In this document: positions 11,195-34,797 of the stretch, one piece after another
Layout of the letters: every line of letters begins with the position of its first letter
How positions within the stretch are numbered: position 1 is the stretch's first letter
Assembly (NCBI GenBank): GCA_903951445.1
Contig: CAJBBZ010000183.1
Location: forward strand, 1 to 49,287
From: an uncultured beta proteobacterium
Lineage (GTDB): Bacteria > Pseudomonadota > Gammaproteobacteria > Burkholderiales > Burkholderiaceae_C
DNA length: 49,287 nucleotides
Direction: 5' to 3'
Notes under the pieces: model-generated
The model's database searches: none
What the model was told of the DNA's origin: nothing
Seen by the model: only the letters and a program-made list of their open reading frames with translations
Made by a program: the position numbers and the translations under genes

Positions 11195-11205
11195 GCTTTG
11201 CTGCG

Positions 11206-11226: not shown

Positions 11227-11246
11227 TAGGGATAAACCATAAGAAG

Positions 11247-11287: not shown

Positions 11288-11295
11288 CTTCGGGC

Positions 11296-12165: not shown

Positions 12166-12288
12166 ATTCAGGCAGTCGCATGAAGAGGCGGCACGCGCTA
12201 ATGGGGACGCAGGGGGCGGCGATACACCAGCACGCGCTGAACGCGCGGCACAGGCTTTTAGGCTTTGCAAAAGCAAGGAGTTCATGCA

Positions 12289-13497: not shown

Positions 13498-13772
13498 ACC
13501 TGGAGCAGCTGTACCAGGGCCCGCTGGTGGTGGATATCGCCATCGGCTTCATCACCCTGGAAACCCTGCTGCTCTGGGCTTTTCACACATGGACCGGGCG
13601 CGGATTGGCTTTAGCCGACTGCGTGCTGACGATTCTTTCCGGGGTCTTTCTGATGCTGGCGCTGCGCTGCGCCCTAACGCCAGGCGGCTGGCCGGGCATG
13701 GCCCTTTTTTTGATTGCCGCAGGCATTGCCCACGGCGCGGATTTACGTATCCGCTGGCGCAATAAGGCCTGA
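13494..13772 (+). CDS. Small membrane protein downstream of bchP, function unknown
   Basis: This is a 92-residue protein starting at GTG, whose start overlaps the bchP stop (GTGA), a typical translationally coupled arrangement. It has about three hydrophobic helices: VVDIAIGFITLETLLLWAF, LADCVLTILSGVFLMLAL and GMALFLIAAGIAHGADL. It ends RIRWRNKA. I do not recognise the family. Coupling to bchP suggests a role in pigment synthesis or membrane assembly, but that is inference. Its last 30 bases overlap the convergent cbbR 3' end. Confidence 0.7.
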   Translation: MNLEQLYQGPLVVDIAIGFITLETLLLWAFHTWTGRGLALADCVLTILSGVFLMLALRCALTPGGWPGMALFLIAAGIAHGADLRIRWRNKA

Positions 13773-14711: not shown

Positions 14712-14728
14712 TAAGTAATAGCTTAACC
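14711..14728. promoter_or_regulatory. Candidate CbbR operator between cbbR and sga
   Basis: TTAAG (14711-14715) and CTTAA (14722-14726) are an inverted repeat overlapping the cbbR start codon, 22 bases upstream of the sga -35 box. The pattern TTA-N3-AATA-N2-TTAA recurs, one base shorter, at 16172-16186 before cbbL. It loosely fits the TNA-N7/8-TNA description of CbbR sites. Confidence 0.45.
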
Positions 14729-14748
14729 GAAAACAAAAAATATATGAA

Positions 14749-14777
14749 TTTACTTTCGAATGACGGGCTTTTAGAGT
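14749..14777 (+). promoter_or_regulatory. Predicted promoter of sga, matching the cbbL promoter
   Basis: -35 TTTACT (14749-14754), 17-base spacer, -10 TAGAGT (14772-14777). The larger block AATTTACTTT-N10-GCTTTTAGA-N-TCC (14747-14779) is repeated with identical spacing before cbbL at 16207-16239. The intervening 10 bases differ, so the shared bases look functional. Confidence 0.6.
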
Positions 14778-14814
14778 CCAACTTCTTAACCCCTCCAACC
14801 GAAAGGATACCGCT

Positions 14815-16068
14815 ATGGCTGGTCGTAATTTTCTCTTTGTACCCGGTCCCACCAATGTGCCCGATCGTATTCAGCGATCCATGATGGTATCCATGGAGGA
14901 CCATCGTTCGCCGCGCTTTCCCCAACTCACCCACACCATCATGGCCGGGCTACGCGAGGTTTTCCGCACCCAGACGGGCACACCATTTGTGTTTCCGTCC
15001 TCGGGCACAGGTTGCTGGGAAGCGGCACTGACCAACACCTTGTCGCCCGGCGACAAAGTACTGGCGGCGCGCTTTGGCCAATTCAGCCACCTGTGGATTG
15101 ATATGTGTGAGCGCCTGGGCCTGGACGTGCAGATTGTGGACTGCGAATGGGGCACCGGCATACCTTTGCAGCAATTCGAAGACATTCTCAAGGCCGATAC
15201 GCACCACCAGATTAAGGCTGTCTTGGCTTGCCAAAACGAAACCGCCACCGGCGTGAGTTCAGACATTGCCGGTGTGCGCGAAGCCTTGGACGAGGCAGCA
15301 CACCCGGCCCTGCTGTTCGTGGACTGCGTTTCTTCTCTAGGCTGCCTGGAGTTCCGCTTTGATGACTGGGGCATCGACATGGCGGTTTCCGGTTCTCAAA
15401 AAGGCTTTATGTTGCCTGCGGGCCTGGGCATTCTGTGCGCTAGCCCCAAGGCCTTGGCCATGTACCCATCGTCCAAGCTCAAGCGCGCTTACTTTGATCT
15501 GCCGGACATGATCCAAAGCAATGCCACCGGCTACTTCCCCTACACCCCAGCTTTGTCACTGATGTACGGGCTGATTGAGGCGCTCAAGATGATCAGCGAA
15601 GAAGGCCTGGACAATGTCATCGCGCGCCACCATTACCTGGCCGAAGGCGTGCGCGCTGCGGTGACCCAAGGCTGGCAACTCAAGCTATGCGCCAAAGAAC
15701 AACGCTGGCACTCCGACACCGTGTCGGCGGTGATGCTGCCCGAAGGTATTGCGGGCACGGAAGTCATAGCCCGTGCTTACCAGCGCTACAACCTCTCGCT
15801 GGGCGGCGGACTGTCCAAAGTGGCAGGCAAGCTGTTCCGTATCGGCCATTTGGGCGATATGAACGAAATCCATTTGATGGCCGCCATCAACGGCGCTGAA
15901 ATGGCCATGCTCGATTGCGGCGTCAAAGTGCAGCCCGGCAGCGGTGCAGCCGCTGCTGGCCACTACTGGCGCACGCATGAGGCACCTTCGGGCCTGTGCG
16001 CCATGCCCAAGCCGCAAGAAGCGCAGAGTAATACGCCGCGCTCCAGCCCGGCACTTGCACCCCGCTAA
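14815..16068 (+). CDS. Serine-glyoxylate aminotransferase (class V, PLP)
   Basis: SGAT moves the amino group of serine to glyoxylate, giving glycine and hydroxypyruvate, a photorespiratory (C2) or serine-cycle step. The 417 residues start FLFVPGPTNVPDRIQRSM and keep EDHRSPRFPQLT, PSSGTGCWEAALTNTLSPGD, QNETATGVSSDI and the PLP lysine K196 in VSGSQKGFMLPAGLG. The pattern strongly resembles plant AGT1 and bacterial SgaA proteins. About 30 disordered residues close the protein. GAAAGGA lies eight bases before the ATG. It sits between cbbR and cbbL, and its promoter resembles that of cbbL. Alanine-glyoxylate or serine-pyruvate specificity cannot be excluded from sequence alone. Confidence 0.88.
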   Translation: MAGRNFLFVPGPTNVPDRIQRSMMVSMEDHRSPRFPQLTHTIMAGLREVFRTQTGTPFVFPSSGTGCWEAALTNTLSPGDKVLAARFGQFSHLWIDMCERLGLDVQIVDCEWGTGIPLQQFEDILKADTHHQIKAVLACQNETATGVSSDIAGVREALDEAAHPALLFVDCVSSLGCLEFRFDDWGIDMAVSGSQKGFMLPAGLGILCASPKALAMYPSSKLKRAYFDLPDMIQSNATGYFPYTPALSLMYGLIEALKMISEEGLDNVIARHHYLAEGVRAAVTQGWQLKLCAKEQRWHSDTVSAVMLPEGIAGTEVIARAYQRYNLSLGGGLSKVAGKLFRIGHLGDMNEIHLMAAINGAEMAMLDCGVKVQPGSGAAAAGHYWRTHEAPSGLCAMPKPQEAQSNTPRSSPALAPR

Positions 16069-16127
16069 AGCGCAGCACTGAGGGCGGGGAACCTTAAGCC
16101 CCCTCGAGATAAAGCGCTTGCGACATT

Positions 16128-16151
16128 TGACGCGTTCTCCAAGACGCGTCA
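16128..16151 (+). terminator. Stem-loop between sga and cbbL
   Basis: TGACGCGT (16128-16135) and ACGCGTCA (16144-16151) form a perfect 8-bp stem with an eight-base loop, flanked by GCGC on both sides. A loosely T-rich tract follows (TTTGCATTATTTTTATC). A smaller GGGG/CCCC hairpin lies at 16086-16102. The elements probably end or attenuate the sga transcript before the cbbL promoter. Confidence 0.45.
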
Positions 16152-16171
16152 GCGCCTAGTTTGCATTATTT

Positions 16172-16186
16172 TTATCAAATATTTAA
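16172..16186. promoter_or_regulatory. Candidate CbbR operator upstream of cbbL
   Basis: TTATCAAATATTTAA fits TTA-N8-TTA and shares the TTA-N3-AATA-N1/2-TTAA pattern with the site at 14711-14726. It lies 22 bases upstream of the cbbL -35 box, the same offset as at sga. Confidence 0.45.
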
Positions 16187-16190
16187 TTAA

Positions 16191-17738
<1,548 letters not shown>

Positions 17739-22625: not shown

Positions 22626-23066
22626 TTACTGCGCTTGGGCCAATTCGGCCAGGCGCTTGTGCACGGCCCGCTTACCCATTTTTCGCAACTGCACAATCGC
22701 CTCTAACTGTGCAGCGCGGGGTCTGACGCGGCCTTGCTCCCATTTGTAAATCGACTGGTCGCTCACCCCCAGCAAAGAAGCTGTCTGGGCCGCATTGATG
22801 CCCAATTTTTTACGCAGGGTGGCAAAGCCAGATGCTCTGAACCGCGCTCTCTGCGCTTCTGACGCGGCTTTTACCGAGGCTACGCTAACTGCGCCTTTGG
22901 ACAATTGCTTGAGCGCACGCTCCAATGCGGAAAGCCGTTTTTTGAGTGCGGCGTTATCGGCGCGTTGCTGCGCCCATGTTTTCTTCATCGCCATCGCGTT
23001 TTCCCGCACTTTACGGTTCGCGACACGGGTGATTTCATCTTTCAACTGTTTAGCAAATGCAGACAA
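22626..23066 (-). CDS. XRE/Cro-type helix-turn-helix protein
   Basis: This is a 146-residue probable DNA-binding protein. The first 60 residues are a basic, heptad-like helical region (KQLKDEITRVANRKVRENAM, then ADNAALKKRLSALERALKQ), and the HTH is at 84-125: LRKKLGINAAQTASLLGVSD followed by QSIYKWEQGRVRPR. The start is TTG at 23066, preceded by a strong AAGGAGG. It resembles small regulators common in Burkholderiales; its target is unknown. A GCAATTATTGC palindrome at 23107-23117 in its upstream region could be an autoregulatory operator. Confidence 0.75.
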   Translation of the reverse strand: MSAFAKQLKDEITRVANRKVRENAMAMKKTWAQQRADNAALKKRLSALERALKQLSKGAVSVASVKAASEAQRARFRASGFATLRKKLGINAAQTASLLGVSDQSIYKWEQGRVRPRAAQLEAIVQLRKMGKRAVHKRLAELAQAQ

Positions 23067-23809: not shown

Positions 23810-25039
23810 TCAAAACCTTTGCGCGCGTAAAGGATGTAAATCCAAGGCGCTTGGACGGCCACCTACCATGTCGGCCACCATACTCCCGGTCAGTCCGCCC
23901 AAAGTCAGCCCAATGTGCTGATGGCCAAAGGCATACACCACCCGCGCGCTATTGCGCGAACGCCCCAATACCGGCAGGCCATCGGGCAGCGTCGGTCGGA
24001 AACCCAGCCAGGGCGCCTGCGGCGCACCTAGAGCAGGTAAGGCACGGTGCGATGCAAAGTTCAGCAGATCCAGCAAACCGGGGTGCATTTCCTGCCCTAA
24101 GTCCGCCAACTCCACCGTGCCGGCCACGCGTATGCCTTGCGCCATGGGCGTCATATAAAAACCACGCTCGGCCCAACCTACAGGACGTGAAATCAAAGGG
24201 GTGCTGCCAGGGAACATCAGGTGGTAGCCGCGCTCGGCTTGCAGCGGCACATCGTCGCCACATTGGGCCGCCAAGGCTTTGGAATGCACACCCGCGCACA
24301 GGGCTAGGTAATCGTAGGCGCTGTCATGGCCTGCGCCACGCAAGCGCACTTGCTTGTCATCCGCTTGTACTTGCGTCACAGCCAGCGGATGGACCACCAG
24401 CCCCTTGTCTTGCAAATACGCCAACAAGGCATGCAGAAAGGCCGAGGGATCGCTCAGGTGCCAGGAACCTTTGAACAAGGCGCCACGATGAAAGATGGGG
24501 CTGAGCTGCGGCTCTAATTTGGCAATCGCGCCCGCATCGAGAATGTCCGACTCCACGCCCAAAGTGCGGCGCAGTTCCAGGGTGTCGCGTGCACCTTCGA
24601 AAGCGGCGGCGCTGGAATACAAATACAAGCACTCTTGCGGGCACACAAAGCGCTGTAAATCGGCCTCGGCCAGCATCGCGTCATAGCCGCTTTGCGCGCG
24701 GGCCAGCAAATGCGACAAGGCGCTTACCGTGGATGTGTAGCGCGCGGGTGTGGAGGCCCATAAAAAGCGCGCAAGCCAGGGGGCCAAGGCATGCAAGTGC
24801 GACCAGCGTACGCGCAAGGGACTTTGCGACGAGAACAAATAGCGCGGCAGATCACGAAACACCGAGGGGTTGTTGACGGGGATGCATGCGTAATTGGCGA
24901 AGGTGCCAGCATTCCCAAACGATGCGCCGCCCGCTGCGCCACGCGGCTCGTACAAGCTGACCTCGTGACCGTCGCGCATCAGCCAGTAGGCCGATGACAG
25001 CCCGACAAAACCCGCGCCTATGACAGCAACGCGTGCCAT
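23810..25039 (-). CDS. FAD-dependent D-amino acid dehydrogenase family protein (DadA-like)
   Basis: This is a DAO-family flavoprotein that probably oxidatively deaminates a D-amino acid or similar amine and feeds electrons to the respiratory chain. The 409 residues begin with the FAD motif VAVIGAGFVGLSSAYWLM. They keep CAGVHSKALAAQCGDDVPLQ, ERGYHLMFPG, and the C-terminal DGLPVLGRSRNSARVVYAFG and HQHIGLTLGG segments typical of DadA. I chose ATG 25039; a TTG three codons upstream is the alternative. It is the last gene of the minus-strand run, 84 bases after the Mpo1-like gene, so cotranscription is uncertain. Confidence 0.8.
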   Translation of the reverse strand: MARVAVIGAGFVGLSSAYWLMRDGHEVSLYEPRGAAGGASFGNAGTFANYACIPVNNPSVFRDLPRYLFSSQSPLRVRWSHLHALAPWLARFLWASTPARYTSTVSALSHLLARAQSGYDAMLAEADLQRFVCPQECLYLYSSAAAFEGARDTLELRRTLGVESDILDAGAIAKLEPQLSPIFHRGALFKGSWHLSDPSAFLHALLAYLQDKGLVVHPLAVTQVQADDKQVRLRGAGHDSAYDYLALCAGVHSKALAAQCGDDVPLQAERGYHLMFPGSTPLISRPVGWAERGFYMTPMAQGIRVAGTVELADLGQEMHPGLLDLLNFASHRALPALGAPQAPWLGFRPTLPDGLPVLGRSRNSARVVYAFGHQHIGLTLGGLTGSMVADMVGGRPSALDLHPLRAQRF

Positions 25040-25123
25040 CAGGCGCAAGCCCCAGCAGATGCAGCGGGTATCAAACTGCGCGTGGGAACAGGCAACTTGC
25101 GCGCTAAGGCCTTCACGGCCAGC

Positions 25124-25600
25124 TTACCATCGCACACCCAGACGCTCGAAGGCTTTGCTCAGGACAAACAAAGGCCCGACGAGCAGGTATTGCAGGTCCT
25201 CGAAAAAGGAAGGTTTTTTACCTTCAAGATGGTGGCCGATGAATTGAAAAATCCAGGCAACAACAAAAATTCCCACACTGGATTGCACCAGCACACCCGC
25301 GGCGTCCATAGCGTCCACCAGGGCCAGCATCAACGAGGACAAGAGGAGCATGCACAGCGTAAAAGGCCAAGACAGACGGGCGTAATAGACCAGGCTACCT
25401 GCGATCAACAAAAGAACCAGAGCCGGGTGCACGGCAAACAACAAGCCATTGAGGCTGAGCATGATGGCGGGAATCGCCACAAAGTGAATCACTTCATTGA
25501 CCGGGTGCGTATGGCTTAAGCCATAGTGCTGCAAAAGCGTATCGACTTTGCGCTGGGGAATGTCCATCCTTTCCGGCAGCGGGGTTTGCATTGAATCCAT
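25124..25600 (-). CDS. Mpo1-like (DUF962) membrane protein
   Basis: Yeast Mpo1, of the same family, is an Fe(II)-dependent dioxygenase in fatty-acid alpha-oxidation; activity of bacterial members is little studied. The 158 residues carry the conserved polar motifs SHTHPVNEVIHF (29-40; H32, N35, H39) and FIGHHLEGKKPSFFEDLQY (120-138; H123, H124). Between them are about four hydrophobic helices. GGGAGG lies six bases before the ATG. It is 28 bases downstream of the flavoprotein gene, in the same direction, and probably belongs to the operon. Confidence 0.8.
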   Translation of the reverse strand: MDSMQTPLPERMDIPQRKVDTLLQHYGLSHTHPVNEVIHFVAIPAIMLSLNGLLFAVHPALVLLLIAGSLVYYARLSWPFTLCMLLLSSLMLALVDAMDAAGVLVQSSVGIFVVAWIFQFIGHHLEGKKPSFFEDLQYLLVGPLFVLSKAFERLGVRW

Positions 25601-25628
25601 GGTGTGCCTCCCTAATGAAAAACGCGAA

Positions 25629-26750
25629 CTAGGATTTTAAGAATTTCTTCAGCCACGCGACTGCGCGGCCCTGCGTGCATTGTCCGCCCCAGGCCAGCAA
25701 GGCGTGGCTGGCGCCTGCGTACAAAAACTGCAATTTGCGTGGCTTGTTGGCACGCAATTTGGCGGGTTCGGATTGCATCATGGCGTGCACGTTATTGGCC
25801 AGCGCTTCGCTGTCTTGCCAGACATGAAACACCTCCGGGTGGCTGCTGCTGCGCTCGAAGGCGTCGGTGGCCATAGCCTCGTCTTGCACCGCCAGGCCGC
25901 TGGGGACGAGCCAGGCGGGCGCGGTGCGGGCCAAAACCAAAATCGGCACATCGCAGGCCAGACGAGCGCCACTGGCCAGCACCACGTCATCGCGCGTGAG
26001 CGAGGCCACGGTTTCATACAGCACGGTAACACGCTGCTCACGCAGCAATTGCAACATACGCTGGTGCAAGGTTTCGGGATAGGCTTTGTCACCCTCTTGC
26101 TGGGGGCCGATGATCCAGGTCACTGCCGCCGTGGGCATGCGCTGGCGCACAGCCAAAGCCAGCTCAAAGCCCTCGGTGCCTGCGCCAATGACCGCCATAC
26201 GCAGCGCGCGGGTGCGGCCCAGGCCGCAGACCTTGGGCCATAAATTAGCAAAGCCCTCCAGCGGTGGCACAAACAGACCGTGTTCGCGCGCGCCGGGGAT
26301 GGCCGCTTCGATCGCTTCGCGGTGCGGCACCGGGCCGGTGTTGATAGAGAGCAGGTCATAGCTGATGGACTGGCCATCGTCCAGCAAGATGCTGCGCGAC
26401 ACGGCATTGAGGCCACGGCCTTGACGACCGGTCCATTGCACTTTGTCCTGCTGCAAGAGCGGCTCGAAATCGACCATGCAATCGGCCAGCGGCACATCGT
26501 TGGCGACGTAGCGTGCCAGTTTGCGCGGGGCAAAAGTCTGGGTTTGCTGGGCTAAGACCGTGATCTGGACATGCGCCAAGGGTTGGCGCTTGAAGTGTTC
26601 GAGCAAGCGGATATGGGCTGGACCCATACCCCACAAGACCAAATGCTCGGGCCGCCGGTAGGGCCTGGCGGCCAACTGGGCGCCCAAGGCAATGGCTTCT
26701 TCACCCGTGACCACAGAGTCTGCGGAGGGTGTCGGTAATGCTTCCGTCAT
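25629..26750 (-). CDS. NAD(P)/FAD-dependent oxidoreductase, paralogue of the SelD-fused flavoprotein domain
   Basis: This 373-residue NDH-2-like flavoprotein follows selD by four bases. Its first nucleotide-binding motif is degenerate (LVLWGMGPAHIRLLEHF), aligning with LVLVGGGHSHVAVLKAF of the SelD fusion. The second Rossmann motif is normal (MAVIGAGTEGFELALAV). SINTGPVPHREAIEAAIPGA and the C-terminal ASHALLAWGGQCTQGRAVAW also match the fused domain in order. It therefore looks like a diverged duplicate of the N-terminal half of its neighbour. The substrate is unknown. The altered FAD motif raises the possibility of a non-catalytic partner subunit. Confidence 0.8.
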   Translation of the reverse strand: MTEALPTPSADSVVTGEEAIALGAQLAARPYRRPEHLVLWGMGPAHIRLLEHFKRQPLAHVQITVLAQQTQTFAPRKLARYVANDVPLADCMVDFEPLLQQDKVQWTGRQGRGLNAVSRSILLDDGQSISYDLLSINTGPVPHREAIEAAIPGAREHGLFVPPLEGFANLWPKVCGLGRTRALRMAVIGAGTEGFELALAVRQRMPTAAVTWIIGPQQEGDKAYPETLHQRMLQLLREQRVTVLYETVASLTRDDVVLASGARLACDVPILVLARTAPAWLVPSGLAVQDEAMATDAFERSSSHPEVFHVWQDSEALANNVHAMMQSEPAKLRANKPRKLQFLYAGASHALLAWGGQCTQGRAVAWLKKFLKS

Positions 26751-26754
26751 ACCC

Positions 26755-29403
26755 CTATTGTTCCACGAGCGTGATGGGCGCCCGGAAATCGGCCACTTCG
26801 CACACCCGCCCGATCAACGCGCTGTGCGCATAGCCCTGTGTCCGCAAGGCTTGCAAACACGCCTGCGCCTGCTCCCAGGGCACGCTGGCCAGCAAGCCGC
26901 CGGCGGTTTGCGGGTCAAACAGCAATTGGCGGCGCAAGCGCAGCGCTTGGGCGGCGGAAAGTTTCGCATCGTCTGCGTCCAGCGTAGTCGTGACCCTGGC
27001 CGCTACAGCACGCGCGGCGGCAGAACTTGCCTCAGCCTCAGCCTCAGCGCGCGCGCCCGTGCCAGCACTTGGACTTGGATGGGCGCTTTTACCCAAGCCC
27101 GCGCCAAGGCCTGCGTCGGAACCCCGGCCCGATTCTTTTCCCGGCTGCCAAGGCCAACCCGAAATCGCCGAGCCTTGCTGGGCATTGCTGCTGTGCAAGG
27201 AACTGAAAATACCAGCGTCCATAGACGCCAATGCGCCATCGAGTAGCGGCAAAGACGCCAACTCCAATTGCGCGCCCAGGCGCTCGGTTTGCAGCATTTC
27301 CACCAAATGGCCTAGCAAGCCAAAGCCGGTGACATCGGTGCACGCACGGGCGCCGAACTGCGCCAGGGTGCGGGCCGCGTCCTGGCTGGATTGGGCCATG
27401 GTGCCCAGCGCCGCCTCCACCCAGCGGCCACGCGCGCGGCCCAGGGCGTGGGCAGCAAACAAAGTGCCGGTGCCCAGGGGTTTGGTCAAAATCAAGGCGT
27501 CACCGGGCCGCGCGCCAGTCTTGCGCATCAGCTGCACCGGCTGGCCCTGCGCGTCCAGATCCACCAGACCGTTGATGGCAAAGCCTAGCGACAACTCCGG
27601 CCCCTCGCCGCTGTGGCCCCCCACCAGCGCGCAGCCTGCCGAATTGAGCACTTGCACCGCACCAGCCATGAGCTGCGACAACAGGCTTTGGGTCTGGCGG
27701 TCCAAGCCCGGCGGTACCACGGCAATGGCCGTGGCGGTGTGCGGCGTAGCGCCCATCGCAAAAATATCGCCCAGCGCATGGTTGGCGGCAATCTGGCCGA
27801 AGCGGTAGGGGTCGTCGATAAACGCGCGGAAAAAATCCACGGTTTGCACCTGCGCTTTGCCTGGGGGAATACGTATCAGCGCCGCGTCATCGGGCGCGGA
27901 TAGGCCTATCAGCACATCCGGGCTTTCCAGCGTCTGCAAACCGCCCAGCGCCCTACCCAGCACACCCGCCCCCACTTTGGCGGCGCAGCCACCGCAACGC
28001 ATGGCCTGGGCTGCTTGCGCTTGGGTGCGCTCTTGTGCATCCAGGTCTGCGAATTGGGCCAGCGCCTGCGCACCTGTATCACTTGCTGCGGGCGCCATCG
28101 CGGGTAAGCCCAGATCAGAAAAACGCTGCATAAAGCGCCGGTCAATTTGGTCTTTCCAGCGCCATACCCAGGTACCGGCAAAGCCCAGCATGCCGCGCGA
28201 GGCCACCGCATAGCGATCGCCCGTGCTGATCAGGGCCAGCCAATGCTTTTGGGGACGATAGGCTTTTAAGGGCAGTCCGCACAAGGCATGGCGCAGATTG
28301 CGCGCCAATGGCATACCCATGCGCACCGCAAATACACCGGCTTTTTCCAAAGCGCGCGGGCCGAAGGCAGCCACATCGCCGCTGGCAAAAATGCGTGCGT
28401 CGGTGTCGGACTGCAAATACGCGTTCACGCGCACACAGCCGTCGGCATCGAGCGCCAAGCCGGTGGAGGCCAGCCAACTACCCCCTGCGGCTTGCGTCAC
28501 CCAGAAAACGGCGTCGGCTTCTATGTGTTTCAGTGCAGGCGTGGGGCCGGATGTTTGGGTGGCGCTAGGATTGGAACTTGCGTTTACGTTTACGTTTGCG
28601 CTCGCGCAGGCATGCGTGTTGGCGTGAGTGCCTTCAGCATGCTGCGCCACATGGGCACGAGAGTCCATCTCCGTCGCCCGCAACACCTGCACCCCGTTGG
28701 CGCTAAGCGAGTGCACCCGCGCGCCCAGATGCACGTGCACACCACGCGCTTGCAAGGTGTGCATAAAGCGCGCACGCACGCCTGCATTGTGCGTGGGCAA
28801 AATAGTGGGCGCCGCTGAAAACAATGCAAACTGCGGCGCTTGCAGGCCTAGCGCTTGGCATTCTTTGCCTAAGCGGTATTGCATTGCCAGCAGCAACTCC
28901 ACGCCTCCAGCGCCCGCGCCCACCACCGCAATGTGGCGCGGCCCCTGCCCGGCGCGCACGCGGGCAAGGATTTGCAACCAGCGTGCATTAAAAGCGGCAA
29001 TCGGCTTGACCGGTATCGCATGTTCACTTGCGCCCTGCACCTGCGCCACTTGCGGCGTAGAGCCGGTGTTGATCGCCAGCACGTCGTAGTCCAAAGGCGG
29101 GCGCCCGTGGAGCAGCACTTGGCGTGTTTCGCGGTCTATGCCGATAACCTGCGCCCGCACAAAACGCGCACCGGCGTGGGCGCACAAGCGCACTAAATCG
29201 AGATGGACTTCGTCATAGCCATAGTGACCGGCCACATAGCCGGGCAACATGCCCGAATACGGCGTGTGCGCGTCGGTACACACCAAGGTAATGCGCAAAC
29301 CCGCCAGCGGCTGCATGCCAAAGGCTTTGAGCACGGCTACATGACTATGCCCGCCGCCGACCAGCACCAGGTCGCGCAAGATGGGGCCGGAGTGTTTTTG
29401 CAT
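26755..29403 (-). CDS. selD: FAD oxidoreductase-selenide,water dikinase fusion (SelD)
   Basis: SelD makes selenophosphate from selenide and ATP for selenocysteine, selenouridine or Se-cofactor synthesis. Residues 1-440 are an NDH-2-like flavoprotein (LVLVGGGHSHVAVLKAF at 13-29; AVVGAGAGGVELLLAM near 159-174). The SelD domain begins at RCGGCAAKVG (469-478), where C473 and K476 correspond to the catalytic Cys17 and Lys20 of E. coli SelD. It continues with APDDAA, NHALGDIFAMGATP, CALVGGHSGEGPE and LLFDPQTAGGLL. Two low-complexity inserts interrupt it (about 245-292 and 740-808). The fused form is known; the flavin domain may reduce or deliver selenium. Its neighbours form one operon. Confidence 0.93.
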   Translation of the reverse strand: MQKHSGPILRDLVLVGGGHSHVAVLKAFGMQPLAGLRITLVCTDAHTPYSGMLPGYVAGHYGYDEVHLDLVRLCAHAGARFVRAQVIGIDRETRQVLLHGRPPLDYDVLAINTGSTPQVAQVQGASEHAIPVKPIAAFNARWLQILARVRAGQGPRHIAVVGAGAGGVELLLAMQYRLGKECQALGLQAPQFALFSAAPTILPTHNAGVRARFMHTLQARGVHVHLGARVHSLSANGVQVLRATEMDSRAHVAQHAEGTHANTHACASANVNVNASSNPSATQTSGPTPALKHIEADAVFWVTQAAGGSWLASTGLALDADGCVRVNAYLQSDTDARIFASGDVAAFGPRALEKAGVFAVRMGMPLARNLRHALCGLPLKAYRPQKHWLALISTGDRYAVASRGMLGFAGTWVWRWKDQIDRRFMQRFSDLGLPAMAPAASDTGAQALAQFADLDAQERTQAQAAQAMRCGGCAAKVGAGVLGRALGGLQTLESPDVLIGLSAPDDAALIRIPPGKAQVQTVDFFRAFIDDPYRFGQIAANHALGDIFAMGATPHTATAIAVVPPGLDRQTQSLLSQLMAGAVQVLNSAGCALVGGHSGEGPELSLGFAINGLVDLDAQGQPVQLMRKTGARPGDALILTKPLGTGTLFAAHALGRARGRWVEAALGTMAQSSQDAARTLAQFGARACTDVTGFGLLGHLVEMLQTERLGAQLELASLPLLDGALASMDAGIFSSLHSSNAQQGSAISGWPWQPGKESGRGSDAGLGAGLGKSAHPSPSAGTGARAEAEAEASSAAARAVAARVTTTLDADDAKLSAAQALRLRRQLLFDPQTAGGLLASVPWEQAQACLQALRTQGYAHSALIGRVCEVADFRAPITLVEQ
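27031..27048 (-). repeat. Hexanucleotide repeat inside selD (SelD-domain insert)
   Basis: Three tandem copies of CTCAGC (plus strand) encode the alternating Ala-Glu run in the 740-808 insert. A six-base unit keeps the reading frame, so slippage would change linker length without inactivating the gene. Confidence 0.7.
28582..28599 (-). repeat. Hexanucleotide repeat inside selD (flavoprotein-domain insert)
   Basis: Two copies of GTTTAC plus a variant GTTTGC (plus strand) encode the Asn-Val-Asn-Val run of the 245-292 insert (SANVNVNASS). It is again in-frame, and parallels the repeat in the second insert. Confidence 0.6.
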
Positions 29404-29442
29404 AGCCCCCCATTGTGACTAGCCGCGTGACGAGCCGTCTGG

Positions 29443-31704
29443 CTAGCCGCGCCGCCAGCGGTGCCAGCGCGCCAGCCAAGGCATGGCTGCTGCGGGCAGA
29501 TGCGCGCGCTGCCATTGGCCCGCCACCTGCCTGGCCGACTCGCTGAGCGTCGGATAGCTGTGGATGGTGGTCAAAATCGCTTTCAAGCCCAGGCCCTGAC
29601 GCATGGCCAGCGCATAGGGCGCAAGTAATTCGGCGGCATGCTCGCCCACAATACTGACGCCCAGCAAGGTATCGCGCCCGGGCACAGTGAGCACTTTGAC
29701 AAAACCGGCAGGCGCTGCGCCATGCGCTGCATCACAAATCGCACGGTCCAGGCCTGCAAGCTCAAAACGGGTGACTTCAAAAGCTAGGCCGCGCGTCTGC
29801 GCTTGTTGTTCATTGAGGCCCACGCGTGCCACTTCCGGCGCCACATAGACAGCAGTGGGCAACACGCTGTAGTCGGGCCGCAACGCGCCCCATCCGTCGA
29901 GCAAAGCATTGACCGCCGCATACCAGGCTTGGTGCGCAGCGGCATGGGTGAACTGGTAGGGACCTACAACATCACCGGCGGCGTAAATGGATGGGATCAG
30001 GGTTTGCAAATACGCGTCGGTATGCAAAAGCGTATCGCTGGCAATGCCTAATGCTTCCAAGCCAAAACCGCGCAGCCGGGCTTGGCGTCCGGTGGCGCAG
30101 AGGAGCAAATCGTAGGGGACGGCAAATTCGTCGTCTTGCGCGGCTGGTATCGCGGGGGCCGCGTGCGAACCGGACTGTGGAATCATGTTTTGGCGCAGCA
30201 CCACCAATTTATCCGCACCCGCATGCGCTGGCAGAGTTTCGCAACGCAAGACTTGGTGCCCTGTGAATACGCGGACACCATCGGCACTTAATGCGGCTTG
30301 CACCAGCGCGCTGACATCTGCATCTTCTTTTGACAACAAAGCCGGCGCGGCCTCGACCAAGCTCACCTGCGCACCCAGACGCGCAAAGGCCTGCGCCAAC
30401 TCGCAACCGACCGGCCCGCCACCCACGATGGCGATACGCCGAGGCAGCGCGGCAGATTGTTCCAACACATCCCACAAAGTATCGCTGGTCACATAGCCGC
30501 TGTCCTGTAGGCCAGCAATCGCAGGCACGGCCGGCTGCGACCCGGTCGCCAAAATAATGCTGCGGGCGCTGATGCGCTCGGGCGCCTGGCCGCTGCGGCG
30601 CAACTCCACGGTCCAAGGATCGACGATGTAGGCATAAGCTTGCAACACGTCTACTCCCATGGCGCGGTAACGCTGCGGGCTGTCGTGCGGCGCGATGGCG
30701 GCGATGATGCTGCGCACACGTTGCATGACGGCAGCAAAGTCCACCTGCACCGGCCCGGTGTGTATGCCAAAGCCCTGGGCCTGCCGCGCTTGCTGCGCGA
30801 CGCGCGCACTTTGAATCAAGGCCTTGCTGGGCACGCAGCCACGGTTGAGGCAATCACCACCCATCTCGCCCGCCTCCACCAGCGCCACGCGGGCTTGCGC
30901 ATGCGCGGCCACATAGGCAGACACCAAACCACCCGCACCGCCGCCTATGACGATCAGGTTGTAATCAAAACGCGCCGGGCGCTTCCAGCGTGCGGCCACC
31001 GTGCGCCGACGTTGCCAAGCCAATATGCGCCGGGTTAGCCAGGGTGTGCCAGCCATGGCCAGTGCCAAAGCAATCAAGCCAGCGGCGACCTGCGGCTGCA
31101 AGATGTCGGACACCGATTGCAATTGCCCTAGCTGCGCGCCGGCTTGCAAGTAAATCACGGTGGCCGGCAACATGCCGATCTGGCTAAATAAATAAAAGCG
31201 CCAGGCCGGCATGCGCGTCAAACCCATAAGCACATTGACCGCGCCAAAGGGCACAAGCGGAATCAAGCGCAAACTGAGCAAGTAAAAAACACCTTCGCGC
31301 TCCAAGCCGCGCGTCATCTGCCCCAAGCGCCGCGTCATGCCAGCGCCCAGGTAAGCGGGCAAGCTATCGGCCAGCACATGGCGCACCACCAGCAAGCACA
31401 GCGTGGCGCCCAGGCTGGACGCAAAAGACACCAGCAGCAAACCCCAGCCAAAACCCAGCACCGCACCACCGGCCAAGGTCAGCACCACGATGCCTGGCGT
31501 AGAGGCACTGGCCAGGAGCACATACAGCACAAAAAACGCAGCGCGCACCGTCCAGGGTGCTTGTGCGTGCCAGGCTTGCAAGTCTTGGTACTGCGATTGC
31601 AATCGCGCCAGGCTGAACCAATCAGCGCCCTGCAATACACCGACTAGCGCAAGCGCGAGCAAGGCCCCTAGCGCTATACGCCAGAGCATGCGCGCGCTAA
31701 ACAT
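29443..31704 (-). CDS. VTT/TVP38-domain membrane protein fused to a flavin disulfide reductase
   Basis: This is a 753-residue fusion. Residues 1-230 form a VTT (TVP38/DedA-like) membrane domain with LREGVFYLLSLRLIPLVPFGA-type core signature (RLIPLVPFGAVNVLMGLT near 146-163). Residues 245-753 resemble mercuric reductase/dihydrolipoamide dehydrogenase: FAD motif VIGGGAGGLVSAY, redox disulfide C285/C290 in GGDCLNRGCVPSKAL, NAD motif AIVGGGPVGCELAQAF and C-terminal TTIHSYPTLSE. It should move electrons from NAD(P)H to a membrane-proximal disulfide or selenium/sulfur substrate; the substrate is unknown. I chose ATG 31704, overlapping the upstream stop by eight bases. Upstream frame is shadow of the previous gene. 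Confidence 0.88.
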   Translation of the reverse strand: MFSARMLWRIALGALLALALVGVLQGADWFSLARLQSQYQDLQAWHAQAPWTVRAAFFVLYVLLASASTPGIVVLTLAGGAVLGFGWGLLLVSFASSLGATLCLLVVRHVLADSLPAYLGAGMTRRLGQMTRGLEREGVFYLLSLRLIPLVPFGAVNVLMGLTRMPAWRFYLFSQIGMLPATVIYLQAGAQLGQLQSVSDILQPQVAAGLIALALAMAGTPWLTRRILAWQRRRTVAARWKRPARFDYNLIVIGGGAGGLVSAYVAAHAQARVALVEAGEMGGDCLNRGCVPSKALIQSARVAQQARQAQGFGIHTGPVQVDFAAVMQRVRSIIAAIAPHDSPQRYRAMGVDVLQAYAYIVDPWTVELRRSGQAPERISARSIILATGSQPAVPAIAGLQDSGYVTSDTLWDVLEQSAALPRRIAIVGGGPVGCELAQAFARLGAQVSLVEAAPALLSKEDADVSALVQAALSADGVRVFTGHQVLRCETLPAHAGADKLVVLRQNMIPQSGSHAAPAIPAAQDDEFAVPYDLLLCATGRQARLRGFGLEALGIASDTLLHTDAYLQTLIPSIYAAGDVVGPYQFTHAAAHQAWYAAVNALLDGWGALRPDYSVLPTAVYVAPEVARVGLNEQQAQTRGLAFEVTRFELAGLDRAICDAAHGAAPAGFVKVLTVPGRDTLLGVSIVGEHAAELLAPYALAMRQGLGLKAILTTIHSYPTLSESARQVAGQWQRAHLPAAAMPWLARWHRWRRG

Positions 31705-32383
31705 GGCCGTCCTGGCCGCGCTTTGCATGCGGCAAATCTTGTAGCCCAGGCGCTTGCTGTTGGTCTGTGGGCGTATCGGCCAACAAGCGCACTCCGGCGG
31801 CGATGCGGCCCAGCCAGGTGATGGCGCACAAGGCTGCAAAACCATAGGCCAGCGGCACGAAGTAGGCAGGCCAAATACACATGGCACACAAGACCGCCAG
31901 GGTCTCGGTTGCCTCGGTCAAGCCACCCACAAAGTAAAACGATTTTTCAGGATATTGCGGGTTATGCAAACCGCGCTGCGCAGCCAATGCAGCAAAGGCC
32001 AGAAAGCTACTGCCAGTGCCTACAAAAGCCGTAATCAAAACCGCTGCGGCCAGCGCATTGCGCGCCGGGTCCGCCAGGGCAAAGGCCAACACCATCAAGG
32101 CATAAAACACAAAGTCCAAAGCAATGTCTAAAAAGCCGCCTACTGCCGTGCCACCTCCGCTGCCACGGGCCACAGCGCCATCGAGCGCATCACACAAGCG
32201 CGAGCACAAGAGCAAGACCAAACCCACCATCCAGGCCTGCGCTGCTATGCAAGCGGCAGCGAGCACACCCAAGGCAAACCCGACCCAGGTGATACTGTTG
32301 GCCGAAATACCCCAATACAGCAGCGGCCGTGCCAGCGCCTGCACAGCCGGGCGTATCAGGCGGGTGGTAAAGCGGTCCAACAT
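31697..32383 (-). CDS. CDP-alcohol phosphatidyltransferase family protein (YnjF-like)
   Basis: CDP-alcohol phosphotransferases move a phosphatidyl or similar group from a CDP-linked donor to an alcohol at the membrane. The 228 residues have the full active-site motif CDALDGAVARGSGGG then GGFLDIALD, with D65, D68, G69, A72, R73, D86 and D90. About six hydrophobic helices are present. The gene position next to an ABC ATPase resembles E. coli ynjF beside ynjCD. The substrate is not predictable. The stop overlaps the start of the VTT-reductase fusion. Confidence 0.85.
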   Translation of the reverse strand: MLDRFTTRLIRPAVQALARPLLYWGISANSITWVGFALGVLAAACIAAQAWMVGLVLLLCSRLCDALDGAVARGSGGGTAVGGFLDIALDFVFYALMVLAFALADPARNALAAAVLITAFVGTGSSFLAFAALAAQRGLHNPQYPEKSFYFVGGLTEATETLAVLCAMCIWPAYFVPLAYGFAALCAITWLGRIAAGVRLLADTPTDQQQAPGLQDLPHAKRGQDGHV

Positions 32384-32423
32384 AGCGGCATTGTCGGTGC
32401 AAGTAATGACACGTTATGCGGAC

Positions 32424-33143
32424 TCATGGTGCGGCCAAATGCGTGACGCGCTGCGCGTCCAAGATGTCGGCTGGGTCGTGCGTGACCACTAGGGCGCTGA
32501 TGCCGCGCCGCGCCACTGCGCCCCCTACCAGCGCGCGCATGCGCTGGCGCAGCGCCACATCGAGTTTGGCAAAAGGCTCATCGAGCATCAAAGCTTGCGG
32601 TTGCGACAACAAGGCGCGCGCCAGTGCGGCGCGAGCGCGCTGACCGCCCGATAGCGTAGCCGGGTCGGCATGCGCAAAACCGGCCAACTCCACTTCCTCT
32701 AAGGCCTGCGCCACCTGCGCTTCGCGTGCGGCGTGCGGCCCGGCGGCAACGGCGAACAACAGGTTTTCGCGCACCGTCATGTGCGCAAACAATAAATCGT
32801 CTTGGTACAACAAAGCAATGCGCCGTGCGCGGGTGGGCAAGTGGTCCACGCGACGCCCCATGACATGTACCTCGCCAATAAATTGCATGCTTGGCGCCAG
32901 TGTGCCGCACACCGCCGCTAGCAAGCTGGACTTGCCCGAACCGCTGGCCCCCATGAGCGTGTGCACCGTGCCAGCAGGCAGTGCAATGTCTAGACCTTGC
33001 ACCAAGGTCGCACCGGGGCTGCGCAGGCGCTGCACTTGCAGGTGTAGCGCCGGGGGATCGTCAAGAGAACTGGGCACCAGCGTGTTACTGGGCTTGAGTG
33101 CCGGTCGGTGCAGCGCTGCGGGAGTGTCGGGCGAATTGGACAT
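32424..33143 (-). CDS. ABC transporter ATP-binding protein (YnjD/ThiQ-like)
   Basis: This 239-residue ABC ATPase energises the adjoining permease. Walker A GASGSGKSS (65-73), Q-loop Q114 in LLYQDDLLF, signature LSGGQRARAAL (164-174), Walker B LMLDEP (185-190) and switch H222 in VVTHDP are all present. The nearest characterised relatives are YnjD and thiamine/iron ThiQ/FbpC-type ATPases. I chose the ATG at 33143; the ATG at 33155 (four residues longer), directly after the permease stop, is an alternative. It is cotranscribed with the permease. Confidence 0.88.
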   Translation of the reverse strand: MSNSPDTPAALHRPALKPSNTLVPSSLDDPPALHLQVQRLRSPGATLVQGLDIALPAGTVHTLMGASGSGKSSLLAAVCGTLAPSMQFIGEVHVMGRRVDHLPTRARRIALLYQDDLLFAHMTVRENLLFAVAAGPHAAREAQVAQALEEVELAGFAHADPATLSGGQRARAALARALLSQPQALMLDEPFAKLDVALRQRMRALVGGAVARRGISALVVTHDPADILDAQRVTHLAAP

Positions 33144-33156
33144 AAGCCAGCGCATC

Positions 33157-34797
33157 CTAAGCCAGGCCACGCGCAAAAAAGGGCTGCGCAAAACGCCGCT
33201 TGCGGCCAAGCCACAGTGCCAGTGCGAACAGGCATGCAGGCAACAGCCATTGCAACAAGGCAAAAGCGGCCAGCAGCGAACGTTGGCCGCCCGATGACAG
33301 CGCCACCGCTTCAGTGATCACCGTCGCAAAGCGCCCGCCGCCGACAAACAAGGTAGGTAGAAACTGCGCCACGCTCACCGCAAAACCCACCGCAAACGCC
33401 GCCGCCAAGGCCGCGCGCAACAAGGGCCATTGCACCTGCCACAGATAGGCCCAATGCGAGCGGCCCAGGCTGGCCGCCAACTGCGCTCCGCGCGGGTCCA
33501 GCGCTGCATATGGGCCTTGCAAGCTGAGCAGCACATAAGGCCACACACTCAGGCTATGCGCCAGCCACAAGCCCCAGGCGCTGGCGTCCCAGCCCAAAGC
33601 GATACAAAGGCGCTGCAAGCCAATGGCCCAGAGCAAGCTCGGCAAGGCCAGCGGCAGGTAAGCGGCGCTCAACAGAGCGGCACGCCAAGGCGCAGGCAGG
33701 CATTCCAGGCAAGCCACTGCCAGCACCAATGCAGTGCCCGCGCTGGCCAGCCCCAGCCACAAGGTGGTGCCCAGCACGCTGGTGCTGCCCAGCACTTGCT
33801 GCCAGGCTTGCAGCGTCCAAGCCTGCGGCCACAGCGCAGGAAACGGCCAGGCTCCCGCCACGCTACCCCACAAAAGCGCCGCTGCAAGCAGCGCGTACAA
33901 GGCGGGCAAAGCAAGCAGCAGGCAAGGCCCGATGGTGGCCCTAAAGGCGCCGCCCTTCGCGCCCTTGGCATGCTCCAAGCGCTGCGGCCCGCGCGTCCAG
34001 CGCGCAGGGGCCAGCCAGCGCACATCCATGCGGTACAGCATCCATACAAGTCCAGCCAGCAACACGGTGCAAAGCAAAAGCAATAAAACAGCCACCAGCC
34101 CCTGCGCCCGGACACCCGGGTCCGCATCTTGCAGCCACTGCCAGGCCAGCACCGCCAGCGTCGGCGGTGCGCCCGGCCCGATGATCCAGGCCACATCTAC
34201 CACCGACAGGCTGTACGCCCACACCGCCAACAGCGGCCCAGCCATGCGCGGCAGTAACTGCGGCCAGACCACGCGCCACCAGGCCGACTGCGCGCTGTAG
34301 CCCAGCGTGGCCGCGATACGCATTTGTGCAGCCCAAGCCTGCGCCACATCGGGCCGCTGCATATGCGCCAGTGCGCCCCACAATAAAAACGGAATCTCTT
34401 TGCACACCAGCACCAGCACCAAACCCAGGGCCCAGGGGTCTTGCGTGCTTTGCCAAGGCGGCGGCGCGTCCAGCGGCCAGGGCATCACATCGGCCCAAGG
34501 GTGTAACAGTGCAAAGAAAAGCCGCACCAACCAACCCGAGGGTGCCAGCAACAACACACAACCCAGCGCAAAGGCTACATGCGGCAAGGCCAGCATGGCG
34601 GGCAAAAGCGCTGCATGCTTGCGCGCTGCGCGCAAACCCAAGCCCGTGGACAAGATGCAAGCGCTGGCGCCCAGTGCCAGCAGCGTGGCCGCCAAGCCGC
34701 TGCACAGCGACAAGGTCAAGGCCTGCGCAAACTGCGCGTGCTGTAGTAATTGCGCGCCGTCCTGAACGAAGGATGAAAAGGATAAAAAAAGGTCCAC
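33157..34797 (-). CDS. ABC transporter permease, two fused membrane domains (YnjC-like)
   Basis: This is a fused permease with two BPD-type membrane halves of about six helices each, like YnjC or ThiP. Each half should carry an EAA-type cytoplasmic loop: AATLGYSAQSAWWRVVWPQLLP in the first and AASLGRSHWAYLWQVQWPLL in the second. The start is uncertain. The open frame extends to 35064 but upstream of about 34800 it is antisense to rlmJ and does not look like protein. I chose GTG 34797 (546 residues), giving VDLFLSFSSFVQDGAQ before ALTLSLCSGLAATLLALG. The first helix expected in the family is short or missing. No substrate-binding protein gene is nearby. Confidence 0.75.
   Translation of the reverse strand: MDLFLSFSSFVQDGAQLLQHAQFAQALTLSLCSGLAATLLALGASACILSTGLGLRAARKHAALLPAMLALPHVAFALGCVLLLAPSGWLVRLFFALLHPWADVMPWPLDAPPPWQSTQDPWALGLVLVLVCKEIPFLLWGALAHMQRPDVAQAWAAQMRIAATLGYSAQSAWWRVVWPQLLPRMAGPLLAVWAYSLSVVDVAWIIGPGAPPTLAVLAWQWLQDADPGVRAQGLVAVLLLLLCTVLLAGLVWMLYRMDVRWLAPARWTRGPQRLEHAKGAKGGAFRATIGPCLLLALPALYALLAAALLWGSVAGAWPFPALWPQAWTLQAWQQVLGSTSVLGTTLWLGLASAGTALVLAVACLECLPAPWRAALLSAAYLPLALPSLLWAIGLQRLCIALGWDASAWGLWLAHSLSVWPYVLLSLQGPYAALDPRGAQLAASLGRSHWAYLWQVQWPLLRAALAAAFAVGFAVSVAQFLPTLFVGGGRFATVITEAVALSSGGQRSLLAAFALLQWLLPACLFALALWLGRKRRFAQPFFARGLA

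What the first reader, a model, noticed from the sequence alone, without database searches (positions are those of the whole stretch)
23810..34797. Operon joining an ABC transporter, CDP-alcohol transferase, VTT-flavin reductase fusion and SelD fusion
Six genes are tightly packed on the minus strand: a YnjC-like permease, a YnjD-like ATPase, a YnjF-like CDP-alcohol transferase, a VTT membrane domain fused to a mercuric-reductase-like enzyme with a CxxxxC disulfide, an NDH-2-SelD fusion, and a flavoprotein related to the SelD partner. The first parts resemble the E. coli ydjXYZ-ynjABCDEF locus, whose function is unsettled and which lies in the same general chromosomal region as selD. The combination suggests import, reduction and activation of a selenium or sulfur species, possibly linked to a membrane lipid. 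This is the best candidate for an undescribed system here. Functional coupling is inferred from gene order and overlaps.
Basis: partly seen in the sequence, partly recalled or inferred. Interest (0 to 1): 0.85.

Follow-up and report, generated by a model that had tools for sequence, protein, structure and literature searches.

The report
Selenium enzyme inside a mystery operon
In some relatives of the bacterium Comamonas, an enzyme that prepares selenium for use, fused to a flavin enzyme, sits inside a poorly understood transporter, lipid and redox operon related to the E. coli ynj genes, and gene-replacement patterns suggest that its flavin half really works with that operon.

Summary
Ten MAG loci of other species show the same order as far as their contigs reach.

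Selenium is involved but does not explain the whole. The fusion is the only SelD found; its catalytic residues are intact and SelU is present. SelB, SenB and ArsS were not found. In 150 family genomes the flavoprotein accompanies VTT-MerA in 44 of 45, standalone or fused to SelD, both at full strength only once: the fusion seems to fill the operon's flavoprotein slot. In 234 phylum genomes VTT-MerA is independent of SelD (11 of 36 have it), and in SelD-negative genomes it also occurs with ynjBCD or arsenosugar-type genes.

Best reading: a membrane redox/lipid module of unknown cargo, tied to selenium through a shared flavoprotein. A dedicated selenium importer is possible, unproven. New variant of a known kind.

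The parts
33157..34797 (-). YnjC-like double-length ABC permease (start codon GTG inferred)
   Evidence: 34% identical to E. coli YnjC over 471 aligned positions; weak BPD_transp_1; conserved in relatives
32424..33155 (-). YnjD-like ABC ATPase
   Evidence: ABC_tran 103 bits; 48% identical to E. coli YnjD
31697..32383 (-). YnjF-like CDP-alcohol phosphatidyltransferase; the motif D(x)2DG(x)2AR(x)nG(x)3D(x)3D can be read in the sequence (motif recalled)
   Evidence: PF01066 39.5 bits; 49% identical to E. coli YnjF
29443..31728 (-). VTT (DedA/TVP38-type) membrane domain fused to a MerA/E3-like flavin disulphide oxidoreductase
   Evidence: PF09335 73.9 bits, PF07992 180 bits; C293, C298, H723 and Y725 in all 62 rows, E730 in 98%; nearest solved relatives E3 and MerA
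26755..29403 (-). TIGR03169 flavoprotein (NDH-2-like) fused to SelD; the only SelD found in this genome
   Evidence: C473, K476, D506, D523 and D546 in 46 of 46 fusion SelDs aligned, D690 in 45 of 46
25629..26750 (-). second TIGR03169 paralogue (NDH2b): groups with the operons' own flavoproteins; YSGMxPG and AxGD motifs lost
   Evidence: 127.5 bits to TIGR03169, cut-off 310; tree placement; lost motifs in 11 copies
25124..25600 (-). Mpo1-like (PF06127) protein, co-directional and close; co-transcription inferred
   Evidence: 59.7 bits; follows NDH2b in relatives and in L068
23810..25048 (-). DAO-family FAD oxidase, last gene of the run (ORF opens at TTG 25048; an in-frame ATG lies at 25039)
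   Evidence: PF01266 184.5 bits; in the same place, whole or cut by the contig end, in L145-L151, L153 and L164

Best explanation
The operon is a ynj-type membrane module (YnjCD transporter, YnjF CDP-alcohol transferase, VTT-MerA flavoenzyme, TIGR03169 flavoprotein) whose flavoprotein slot has been taken over by an old TIGR03169-SelD fusion. Shown by computation: gene content, conserved order, intact SelD residues, replacement pattern. Inferred mechanism: YnjCD moves a small chalcogen- or metalloid-type compound across the membrane. The membrane-anchored VTT-MerA uses NAD(P)H and its CxxxxC pair to reduce it. The TIGR03169 flavoprotein takes the reduced selenium species to selenide for the SelD domain on the same chain. 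The selenophosphate feeds SelU (2-selenouridine tRNA), the only selenium user confirmed in this genome. The CDP-alcohol transferase would put a polar head group on a membrane lipid used or modified in the process; this step is the least certain.
For: Family sample, 150 genomes: TIGR03169 (>=250 bits) in 44 of 45 VTT-MerA genomes against 3 of 105 others. At the curated cut-off it is 40 of 45 against 2 of 105 (my count). Among the 45, at >=250 bits, 20 have it fused to SelD, 25 standalone, both only in G042, neither in G017 (expected overlap 11; P 1.6e-10 if genomes were independent). On the VTT-MerA tree fused/standalone changes at least 5 times (28 labelled rows). The tree puts NDH2b among standalone operon flavoproteins (set of 18 rows, SH-aLRT 98). 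Phylum sample, 234 genomes, TIGR03169 at E<=1e-45: 9 of 11 with both SelD and VTT-MerA, 12 of 50 with SelD only, 2 of 25 with VTT-MerA only, 0 of 148 with neither. By taxonomic families: 5 of 6, 3 of 22, 2 of 15 (some families fall in more than one class). SelU present. Fusion within 25 kb of VTT-MerA in 10 of 19 fusion genomes other than G000.
Against: VTT-MerA is independent of SelD in the phylum (11 of 36 against 50 of 198; p 0.54). The YnjB-C-D-F set occurs with VTT-MerA without a SelD match (L107, L115, L116). The core also goes with ArsS/ArsM, so the cargo need not contain selenium. In the family sample the fusion sits beside SenB in 11 of the 18 other close fusion genomes, a sufficient reason for its existence there. 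'Both' is rare only at >=250 bits: weaker TIGR03169 copies (111-194 bits) accompany the fusion in G000, G064, G040, G001 and G110. With the curated TIGR03169 cut-off the phylum counts are 8 of 11, 11 of 50, 1 of 25 (my count). No YnjB in the window or in the six relatives' loci that reach beyond the permease. The E. coli locus has ynjBCD/F without MerA-like or TIGR03169 genes. P values ignore shared ancestry. No expression or biochemical data.
Confidence: 0.4

Rival explanations
1. SelD is a passenger. The ynj/VTT-MerA module makes or handles another compound (for example an arsenic- or sugar-containing lipid precursor) and needs only the flavoprotein half; SelD is needed separately for SelU, and the two functions share a chain for historical reasons.
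For: VTT-MerA is shared with ArsS, ArsM, MTAP-like, TIGR04282 and TIGR04283 genes; all 15 ArsS genomes of the family sample have VTT-MerA, often adjacent. TIGR04282/4283 genes also adjoin ynj genes (L130, L062). 25 of 36 VTT-MerA genomes in the phylum have no SelD match.
Against: Without SelD the VTT-MerA module mostly does without the flavoprotein (2 of 25 against 9 of 11), so its need appears together with SelD. Ten window-like loci keep SelD in this operon.
Confidence: 0.33
2. The module moves sulfane sulfur rather than selenium; SelD benefits because selenium travels the same path.
For: The same-genus genome G125 has two rhodaneses and a free VTT protein where VTT-MerA would be, then TIGR03169 and divergent SelD (L054); E. 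coli has the sulfurtransferase YnjE beside ynjD.
Against: No homologue of G125's long rhodanese was found in the other fetched loci searched, and its match to YnjE is weak (23% over 217 positions). TIGR03169 tracks SelD in the phylum (21 of 23); no sulfur trait was tested.
Confidence: 0.15
3. Neighbourhood accident: unrelated genes that lie side by side in one small clade.
For: The exact order was seen only in one group of Comamonadaceae MAGs, though the scan could find close relatives only; promoter- and terminator-like sites are at shuffle level.
Against: Core order kept at 54-78% identity in L152 and L164; dN/dS well below 1; 44 of 45 co-occurrence and near-exclusive replacement across the family.
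Confidence: 0.08

Closest known systems
COG1252/TIGR03169-SelD fusion (Zhang et al. 2008, PMC2432076; Mariotti et al. 2015, PMC4561486; passages read)
   Same: Same two-domain protein; Zhang et al. already proposed that the flavoprotein generates the SelD substrate
   Different: Mariotti et al. report Sec machinery in all their fusion genomes; here 1 of 19 close fusion genomes has a SelB match, and all 19 have a SelU match (18 over the cut-off, G009 in two pieces). In the window the fusion lies inside a ynj-type operon, next to what looks like the decayed flavoprotein of that operon
E. coli ydjXYZ-ynjABCD, ynjE, ynjF locus (FNR-activated, PMC3688515 passages; function unknown)
   Same: YnjC, YnjD, YnjF and VTT homologues; selD nearby
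   Different: E. coli has the YnjB binding protein, ferredoxin-type YdjY, AhpD-like YnjA and rhodanese YnjE; its locus has no MerA-like part and no TIGR03169 protein as annotated
Selenoneine cluster SenA-SenB-SelD
   Same: SenB is in 12 of 19 close fusion genomes, beside the fusion in 11
   Different: SenB not found in G000 (best 7.1e-6); SenA does not appear in the window or in the ten window-like loci; SenA was not searched in the rest of the genome
Arsenosugar module (ArsM, ArsS, MTAP-like, TIGR04282, TIGR04283; NCBI names)
   Same: Shares VTT-MerA, DUF547, DUF3047 and TIGR03169 genes with the ynj-type module
   Different: ArsS not found in G000; ynjD and ArsS are nearly exclusive among VTT-MerA genomes (1 of 45 has both)
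Mercuric reductase MerA
   Same: Fold and CxxxxC; Tyr where E3 enzymes have the catalytic His (comparison recalled)
   Different: Below the MerA cut-off, VTT domain in front, no C-terminal Cys pair

Membership tests
TIGR03169-SelD fusion | TIGR03169 over curated cut-off | tested here: met
   464.6 bits, cut-off 310
TIGR03169-SelD fusion | TIGR00476 SelD over cut-off, with catalytic Cys/Lys and metal-binding Asp | tested here: met
   285 bits, cut-off 125; residues present (roles of the E. coli residues recalled)
TIGR03169-SelD fusion | selenophosphate synthesis | not testable with these tools
   needs an enzyme assay or selD complementation
TIGR04369 oxidoreductase/SelD-related fusion (not SelD) | score over curated cut-off | tested here: not met
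   432.8 bits, cut-off 700
E. coli-type ynj locus | YnjC, YnjD and YnjF homologues together | tested here: met
   34, 48 and 49% identity
E. coli-type ynj locus | YnjB substrate-binding protein | tested here: not met
   no match in the 49-kb window or in L145-L153 and L164, of which six reach beyond the permease; elsewhere in the genome not tested
Mercuric reductase (TIGR02053) | score over curated cut-off | tested here: not met
   314.9 bits, cut-off 454.45
Mercuric reductase (TIGR02053) | active-site CxxxxC | tested here: met
   C293/C298 in 62 of 62
Mercuric reductase (TIGR02053) | C-terminal vicinal Cys pair (recalled) | tested here: not met
   no window Cys after C544 is shared by half the rows, and the C-terminal stretch of the window protein has no Cys
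Selenoneine biosynthesis | SenB in the genome | tested here: not met
   best match 7.1e-6, below cut-off; assembly 99% complete
Selenocysteine (Sec) trait | SelB in the genome | tested here: not met
   no match at E<=1e-60 in G000 (8 of 11 candidates scored); 38 of 150 family genomes match. SelA and tRNA-Sec not tested
2-selenouridine (SeU) trait | SelU/YbbB in the genome | tested here: met
   350.8 bits, cut-off 219.75
Selenium-dependent molybdenum hydroxylase trait | YqeB/YqeC | not tested
Arsenosugar module | ArsS (TIGR04167) over cut-off in the genome | tested here: not met
   best match 5.3e-4

The most novel reading that the evidence does not exclude
The ynj transporter, CDP-alcohol transferase and VTT-MerA enzyme form a dedicated selenium-acquisition module: it brings in an organic selenium compound (for example a selenosugar or lipid-linked selenium), reduces it at the membrane, and hands selenide to a SelD fused to the last reductase. 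This would supply the high-affinity selenium uptake route that a 2022 review (PMC9312934, passage) says has not been identified, and would give the E. coli ynj genes a function.
Probability: 0.18. Interest if true: 0.85.

Novelty: new variant of a known kind. Interest (0 to 1): 0.6.

Why it matters
The ynj genes are present in E. coli and in the Proteobacteria sampled here, yet my searches found no assigned function, and a review states that no high-affinity selenium transport system is known (PMC9312934 passage). The replacement pattern gives a testable statement: the TIGR03169 flavoprotein is the shared piece between SelD and the VTT-MerA/ynj (or ArsS) module. Either the module handles selenium, or selenium and arsenic/sulfur metabolism share a redox step. 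I found neither in print in the searches.

Tried and rejected
Considered and rejected: (1) the second flavoprotein as a plain duplicate of the fusion's first half: the tree puts it with operon flavoproteins. (2) Mercury reduction: MerA cut-off and Cys pair not met. (3) A second SelD elsewhere: the SelD model has one match in G000; the two other AIRS genes read as ThiL and PurM, which is my reading of translations and neighbours, not a family scan. (4) Selenoneine as the purpose here: SenB not found. (5) Sec as the purpose: SelB not found. (6) A general VTT-MerA/SelD link: absent in the phylum. (7) Promoter/terminator scan: at shuffle level.

Literature. Listings only: SelD fusions (21 papers), ynj names (2 papers, 11 papers), arsenosugar/TVP38/DUF547, selenoneine with SelD and transporter, TVP38/SelD/selenium, SenA/SenB. 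Passages by term: PMC5322559, PMC2432076, PMC4561486, PMC3688515, PMC3836016, PMC9068703, PMC7818093, PMC2276186, PMC9312934. No paper was read whole. None of these described this gene set in what I saw.

Not run: structure prediction, fold search, protein-database search, and searches of the genome for YqeB/YqeC, SelA, SenA, YnjB.

Rows dropped before counts. Family VTT-MerA: G032, G039, G070 (MerA part only). Phylum VTT-MerA: G167 (MerA part only, E 1e-145), G275, G370, G165, G371, G153 (35-40% identity, match runs over a stop), and the weaker matches to the MerA part only; G167 and G371 have SelD, so adding these six gives 13 of 42. G269 and G233 were kept although their match runs over one stop. 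YnjD orthologues cut at E 2.3e-44 (next row 9e-40). TIGR03169 cut at 250 bits in the family (lowest kept 257.7, next 221.7) and at E 1e-45 in the phylum (lowest kept 203.7 bits). In one search Mpo1, DAO and RlmJ against L152 are spurious and unused. Trees: L066 (under 120 bits) and L147, L149, L151 left out of the flavoprotein tree; L041/L069 and, by identical sequence, L039/L154 are one gene fetched twice there. In the VTT-MerA tree four rows (L035, L038, L043, L061) bear the ynj label because YnjD is elsewhere in the genome, and three (L104, L108, L129) bear the arsenosugar label for ArsM without ArsS in the stretch. Proximity count: G101, G109, G112, G083 (split VTT-MerA) and G076 (SelD place not listed) left out.
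Full report
WHAT IS THERE. On the minus strand of 34797-23810 eight genes follow each other closely: YnjC-like permease (34797-33157), YnjD-like ATPase (33155-32424), YnjF-like CDP-alcohol phosphatidyltransferase (32383-31697), VTT-MerA-like fusion (31728-29443), TIGR03169-SelD fusion (29403-26755), a second TIGR03169 relative called NDH2b here (26750-25629), an Mpo1-like protein (25600-25124) and a DAO-family oxidase (to 23810). RlmJ runs the other way upstream. E. coli MG1655 has homologues in ydjXYZ-ynjABCD, ynjE, ynjF, with selD 7.6 kb from ynjD. Identities to E. coli are 34% (YnjC), 48% (YnjD), 49% (YnjF) and 30-32% (VTT part with YdjX and YdjZ). The E. coli operon is FNR-activated (PMC3688515, passages); I found no paper that gives it a function.

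IS IT REAL. One scan of the species-genome collection with peptide patterns from the window's fusion, which finds close relatives only, returned 33 loci. Ten of them (L145-L153, L164; MAGs titled Comamonadaceae, Comamonas sp. and Rhodoferax sp.) have the window's order as far as their contigs reach. Three begin inside MerA (L147, L149, L151), one inside the permease (L153), and L152 lacks Mpo1 and DAO. L152 and L164 keep the core set at 54-78% identity. Pairwise dN/dS is 0.05-0.39 for the eight genes against L145, L148, L150 and L164, and 0.18-0.33 for the six core genes against L152. Of the other 23 loci, six have the fusion beside SenB (L154, L155, L156, L159, L162, L163). In L157 it is followed by ArsS, TIGR04283, TIGR04282 and MTAP-like genes, with VTT-MerA converging on them. 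Several of the rest hold a flavoprotein without a SelD match or are short. In the family sample SenB adjoins the fusion in 11 of 18 close fusion genomes other than G000.

THE SELENIUM SIDE. The fusion is the only SelD found in the genome: the SelD model gave one match, the protein search one, and the two other AIRS genes read as ThiL and PurM. E. coli C17, K20, D51, D68 and D91 are matched in 46 of 46 aligned fusion SelDs and D227 in 45 of 46. SelU is present. SelB, SenB and ArsS were not found. So the only selenium user confirmed here is tRNA 2-selenouridine. Of the 19 close fusion genomes, all have a SelU match (18 over the cut-off) and one has a SelB match. SenA, SelA and YqeB/YqeC were not searched in the genome.

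THE FAMILY SURVEY. The same 150 genomes were searched for each gene. VTT-MerA fusion: 45. TIGR03169 at 250 bits or more: 47. Both: 44; VTT-MerA alone: G017; TIGR03169 alone: G098, G121, G125. YnjD orthologues: 29, of which 28 have VTT-MerA (the exception is G125). ArsS: 15, all with VTT-MerA. YnjD and ArsS together: one genome (G041). VTT-MerA with neither: G019, G029, G093. The VTT-MerA core thus travels mostly with one of two partner modules, ynj or ArsS. On the VTT-MerA tree these labels change at least 9 times (41 labelled of 62 rows, quick tree), so partners seem to have been exchanged repeatedly. Gene maps agree: YnjB-YnjC-YnjD-YnjF-VTT-MerA-(DUF547)-(DUF3047)-TIGR03169 in L055-L060 and L065, with some genes missing or contigs cut. 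ArsS, TIGR04282 and TIGR04283 lie beside the same core in L070-L073, with ArsM in L070 and L071 (domains).

THE REPLACEMENT PATTERN. Among the 45 VTT-MerA genomes, TIGR03169 is fused to SelD in 20 (19 close relatives of the window's fusion, itself included, plus the distant G093) and standalone at 250 bits or more in 25; both only in G042, neither in G017. An overlap of 11 would be expected; P(at most 1) is 1.6e-10 if genomes were independent. Weaker copies (111-194 bits) do accompany the fusion in G000, G064, G040, G001 and G110; I read them as the decayed operon copies. On the VTT-MerA tree fused/standalone changes at least 5 times (28 labelled rows). In the TIGR03169 tree NDH2b lies in a set of 18 rows with standalone operon proteins (SH-aLRT 98), while the window's fusion lies in a set of 41 rows, all fusions but one (98). 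The deepest fork between the two sides has almost no support (8), and the program warns that long branches meet at NDH2b and L068. Operon copies in some genomes that also have the fusion are on long branches (NDH2b, L065, L067, L068), but G042's copy is not, and some copies without a fusion are long too (L126, L130, L057, L058). NDH2b has lost the YSGMxPG and AxGD motifs of its family in 11 copies but keeps GxG motifs and is under purifying selection (dN/dS 0.05-0.29). The simplest reading: the flavoprotein half of the fusion does the operon flavoprotein's job, and in the window's clade the fusion gene has come to lie inside the operon beside the decayed original.

THE PHYLUM SURVEY CUTS AGAINST A PURE SELENIUM READING. 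In 234 genomes SelD is in 61, VTT-MerA in 36, TIGR03169 (E<=1e-45) in 23. VTT-MerA and SelD are independent (11 of 36 against 50 of 198, p 0.54). TIGR03169 is tied to SelD (21 of 23) and is commonest where both are present: 9 of 11, against 12 of 50 (SelD only), 2 of 25 (VTT-MerA only) and 0 of 148 (neither). At the curated cut-off it is 8 of 11, 11 of 50 and 1 of 25 (my count). By taxonomic family it is 5 of 6, 3 of 22 and 2 of 15, some families being in more than one class. In genomes without a SelD match VTT-MerA often sits with DUF547, with ArsM/ArsS genes, or with a full YnjB-C-D-F set (L107, L115, L116). P values ignore common descent.

PROXIMITY. Among 19 fusion genomes other than G000, fusion and VTT-MerA are on one contig in 11, within 25 kb in 10; eight have them on different contigs. 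Among 20 genomes with standalone SelD placed, 4 are within 25 kb, 5 are on the same contig but further (56 kb to 4.5 Mb), and 11 are on different contigs.

MECHANISM. The MerA-like part keeps CxxxxC (C293/C298), H723 and Y725 in all 62 homologues and E730 in 98%. A Tyr stands where lipoamide dehydrogenases have the catalytic His, as in MerA (recalled). It scores below the MerA cut-off and has no C-terminal Cys pair. Its nearest solved relatives are E3 (2eq6) and MerA (5x1y). The SelD part is nearest 3u0o and the flavoprotein part nearest NDH-2 (4nwz). A relative's YnjB (L060) has only a weak match to spermidine/putrescine-binding proteins (E 0.008), so its cargo cannot be guessed. The literature already proposed that the fused flavoprotein makes the SelD substrate (PMC2432076, passages), and the fusion is known (PMC4561486, passages). 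I add that this flavoprotein also belongs with the VTT-MerA module. I therefore propose membrane reduction by VTT-MerA, final reduction by TIGR03169 and activation by SelD; all these steps, and transport and lipid steps above all, are inferred.

A TELLING RELATIVE. G125, the same genus as the window, has permease-ATPase-CDP-alcohol transferase, then a 349-aa rhodanese, a free VTT protein 53% identical to YdjZ, an LPG_synthase_TM membrane protein, a second rhodanese, TIGR03169 and divergent SelD (L054). It has no VTT-MerA match at E<=1e-60. This hints at a sulfur/selenium transfer theme, but it is a single case.

VERDICT. Observation confirmed with two added genes; interpretation partly supported. 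The statistical coupling of the flavoprotein to both SelD and the VTT-MerA module is the firmest new result. That the operon imports and activates selenium is one of several open readings.

Noticed in passing
window 357-17738: Genes resembling bacteriochlorophyll synthesis enzymes (NifH/frxC-like, CobN/Mg-chelatase, two nitrogenase-like subunits, UbiA-type prenyltransferase), a PAS-Fis regulator, a B12-binding protein, and RuBisCO large chain: probably a photosynthetic, CO2-fixing Comamonadaceae bacterium.
   Followed up: partly
window 26755-29403: The fusion carries low-complexity inserts, an Asn/Ala/Thr-rich one in the flavoprotein half and an Ala/Glu/Ser-rich one late in SelD; matches in most relatives skip the latter.
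   Followed up: no
L054:4855-12825: Same-genus genome G125 has rhodaneses, a free VTT protein and an LPG_synthase_TM protein in place of VTT-MerA, ending in TIGR03169 with SelD divergent.
   Followed up: partly
L157:10001-18470: SelD fusion directly followed by ArsS, TIGR04283, TIGR04282, MTAP-like and DUF3047 genes, with VTT-MerA on the other strand.
   Followed up: partly
L070, L071, L073: Arsenosugar-type genes, DUF3047 (and DUF547 in two), TIGR03169 and VTT-MerA lie together, and in the same genomes (G050, G123, G063) SenB and SelD lie about 11-17 kb from VTT-MerA: a possible selenium-arsenic metabolism island.
   Followed up: partly
L055-L057, L059, L070, L071, L073: A DoxX/HvfX-like gene recurs near either YnjB or the ArsM/TIGR04282 end, another piece shared by the two modules.
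   Followed up: no
window 22626-23066: A short helix-turn-helix gene downstream of the operon on the same strand, present at 74% and 48% identity in L145 and L150; its role is unknown.
   Followed up: no
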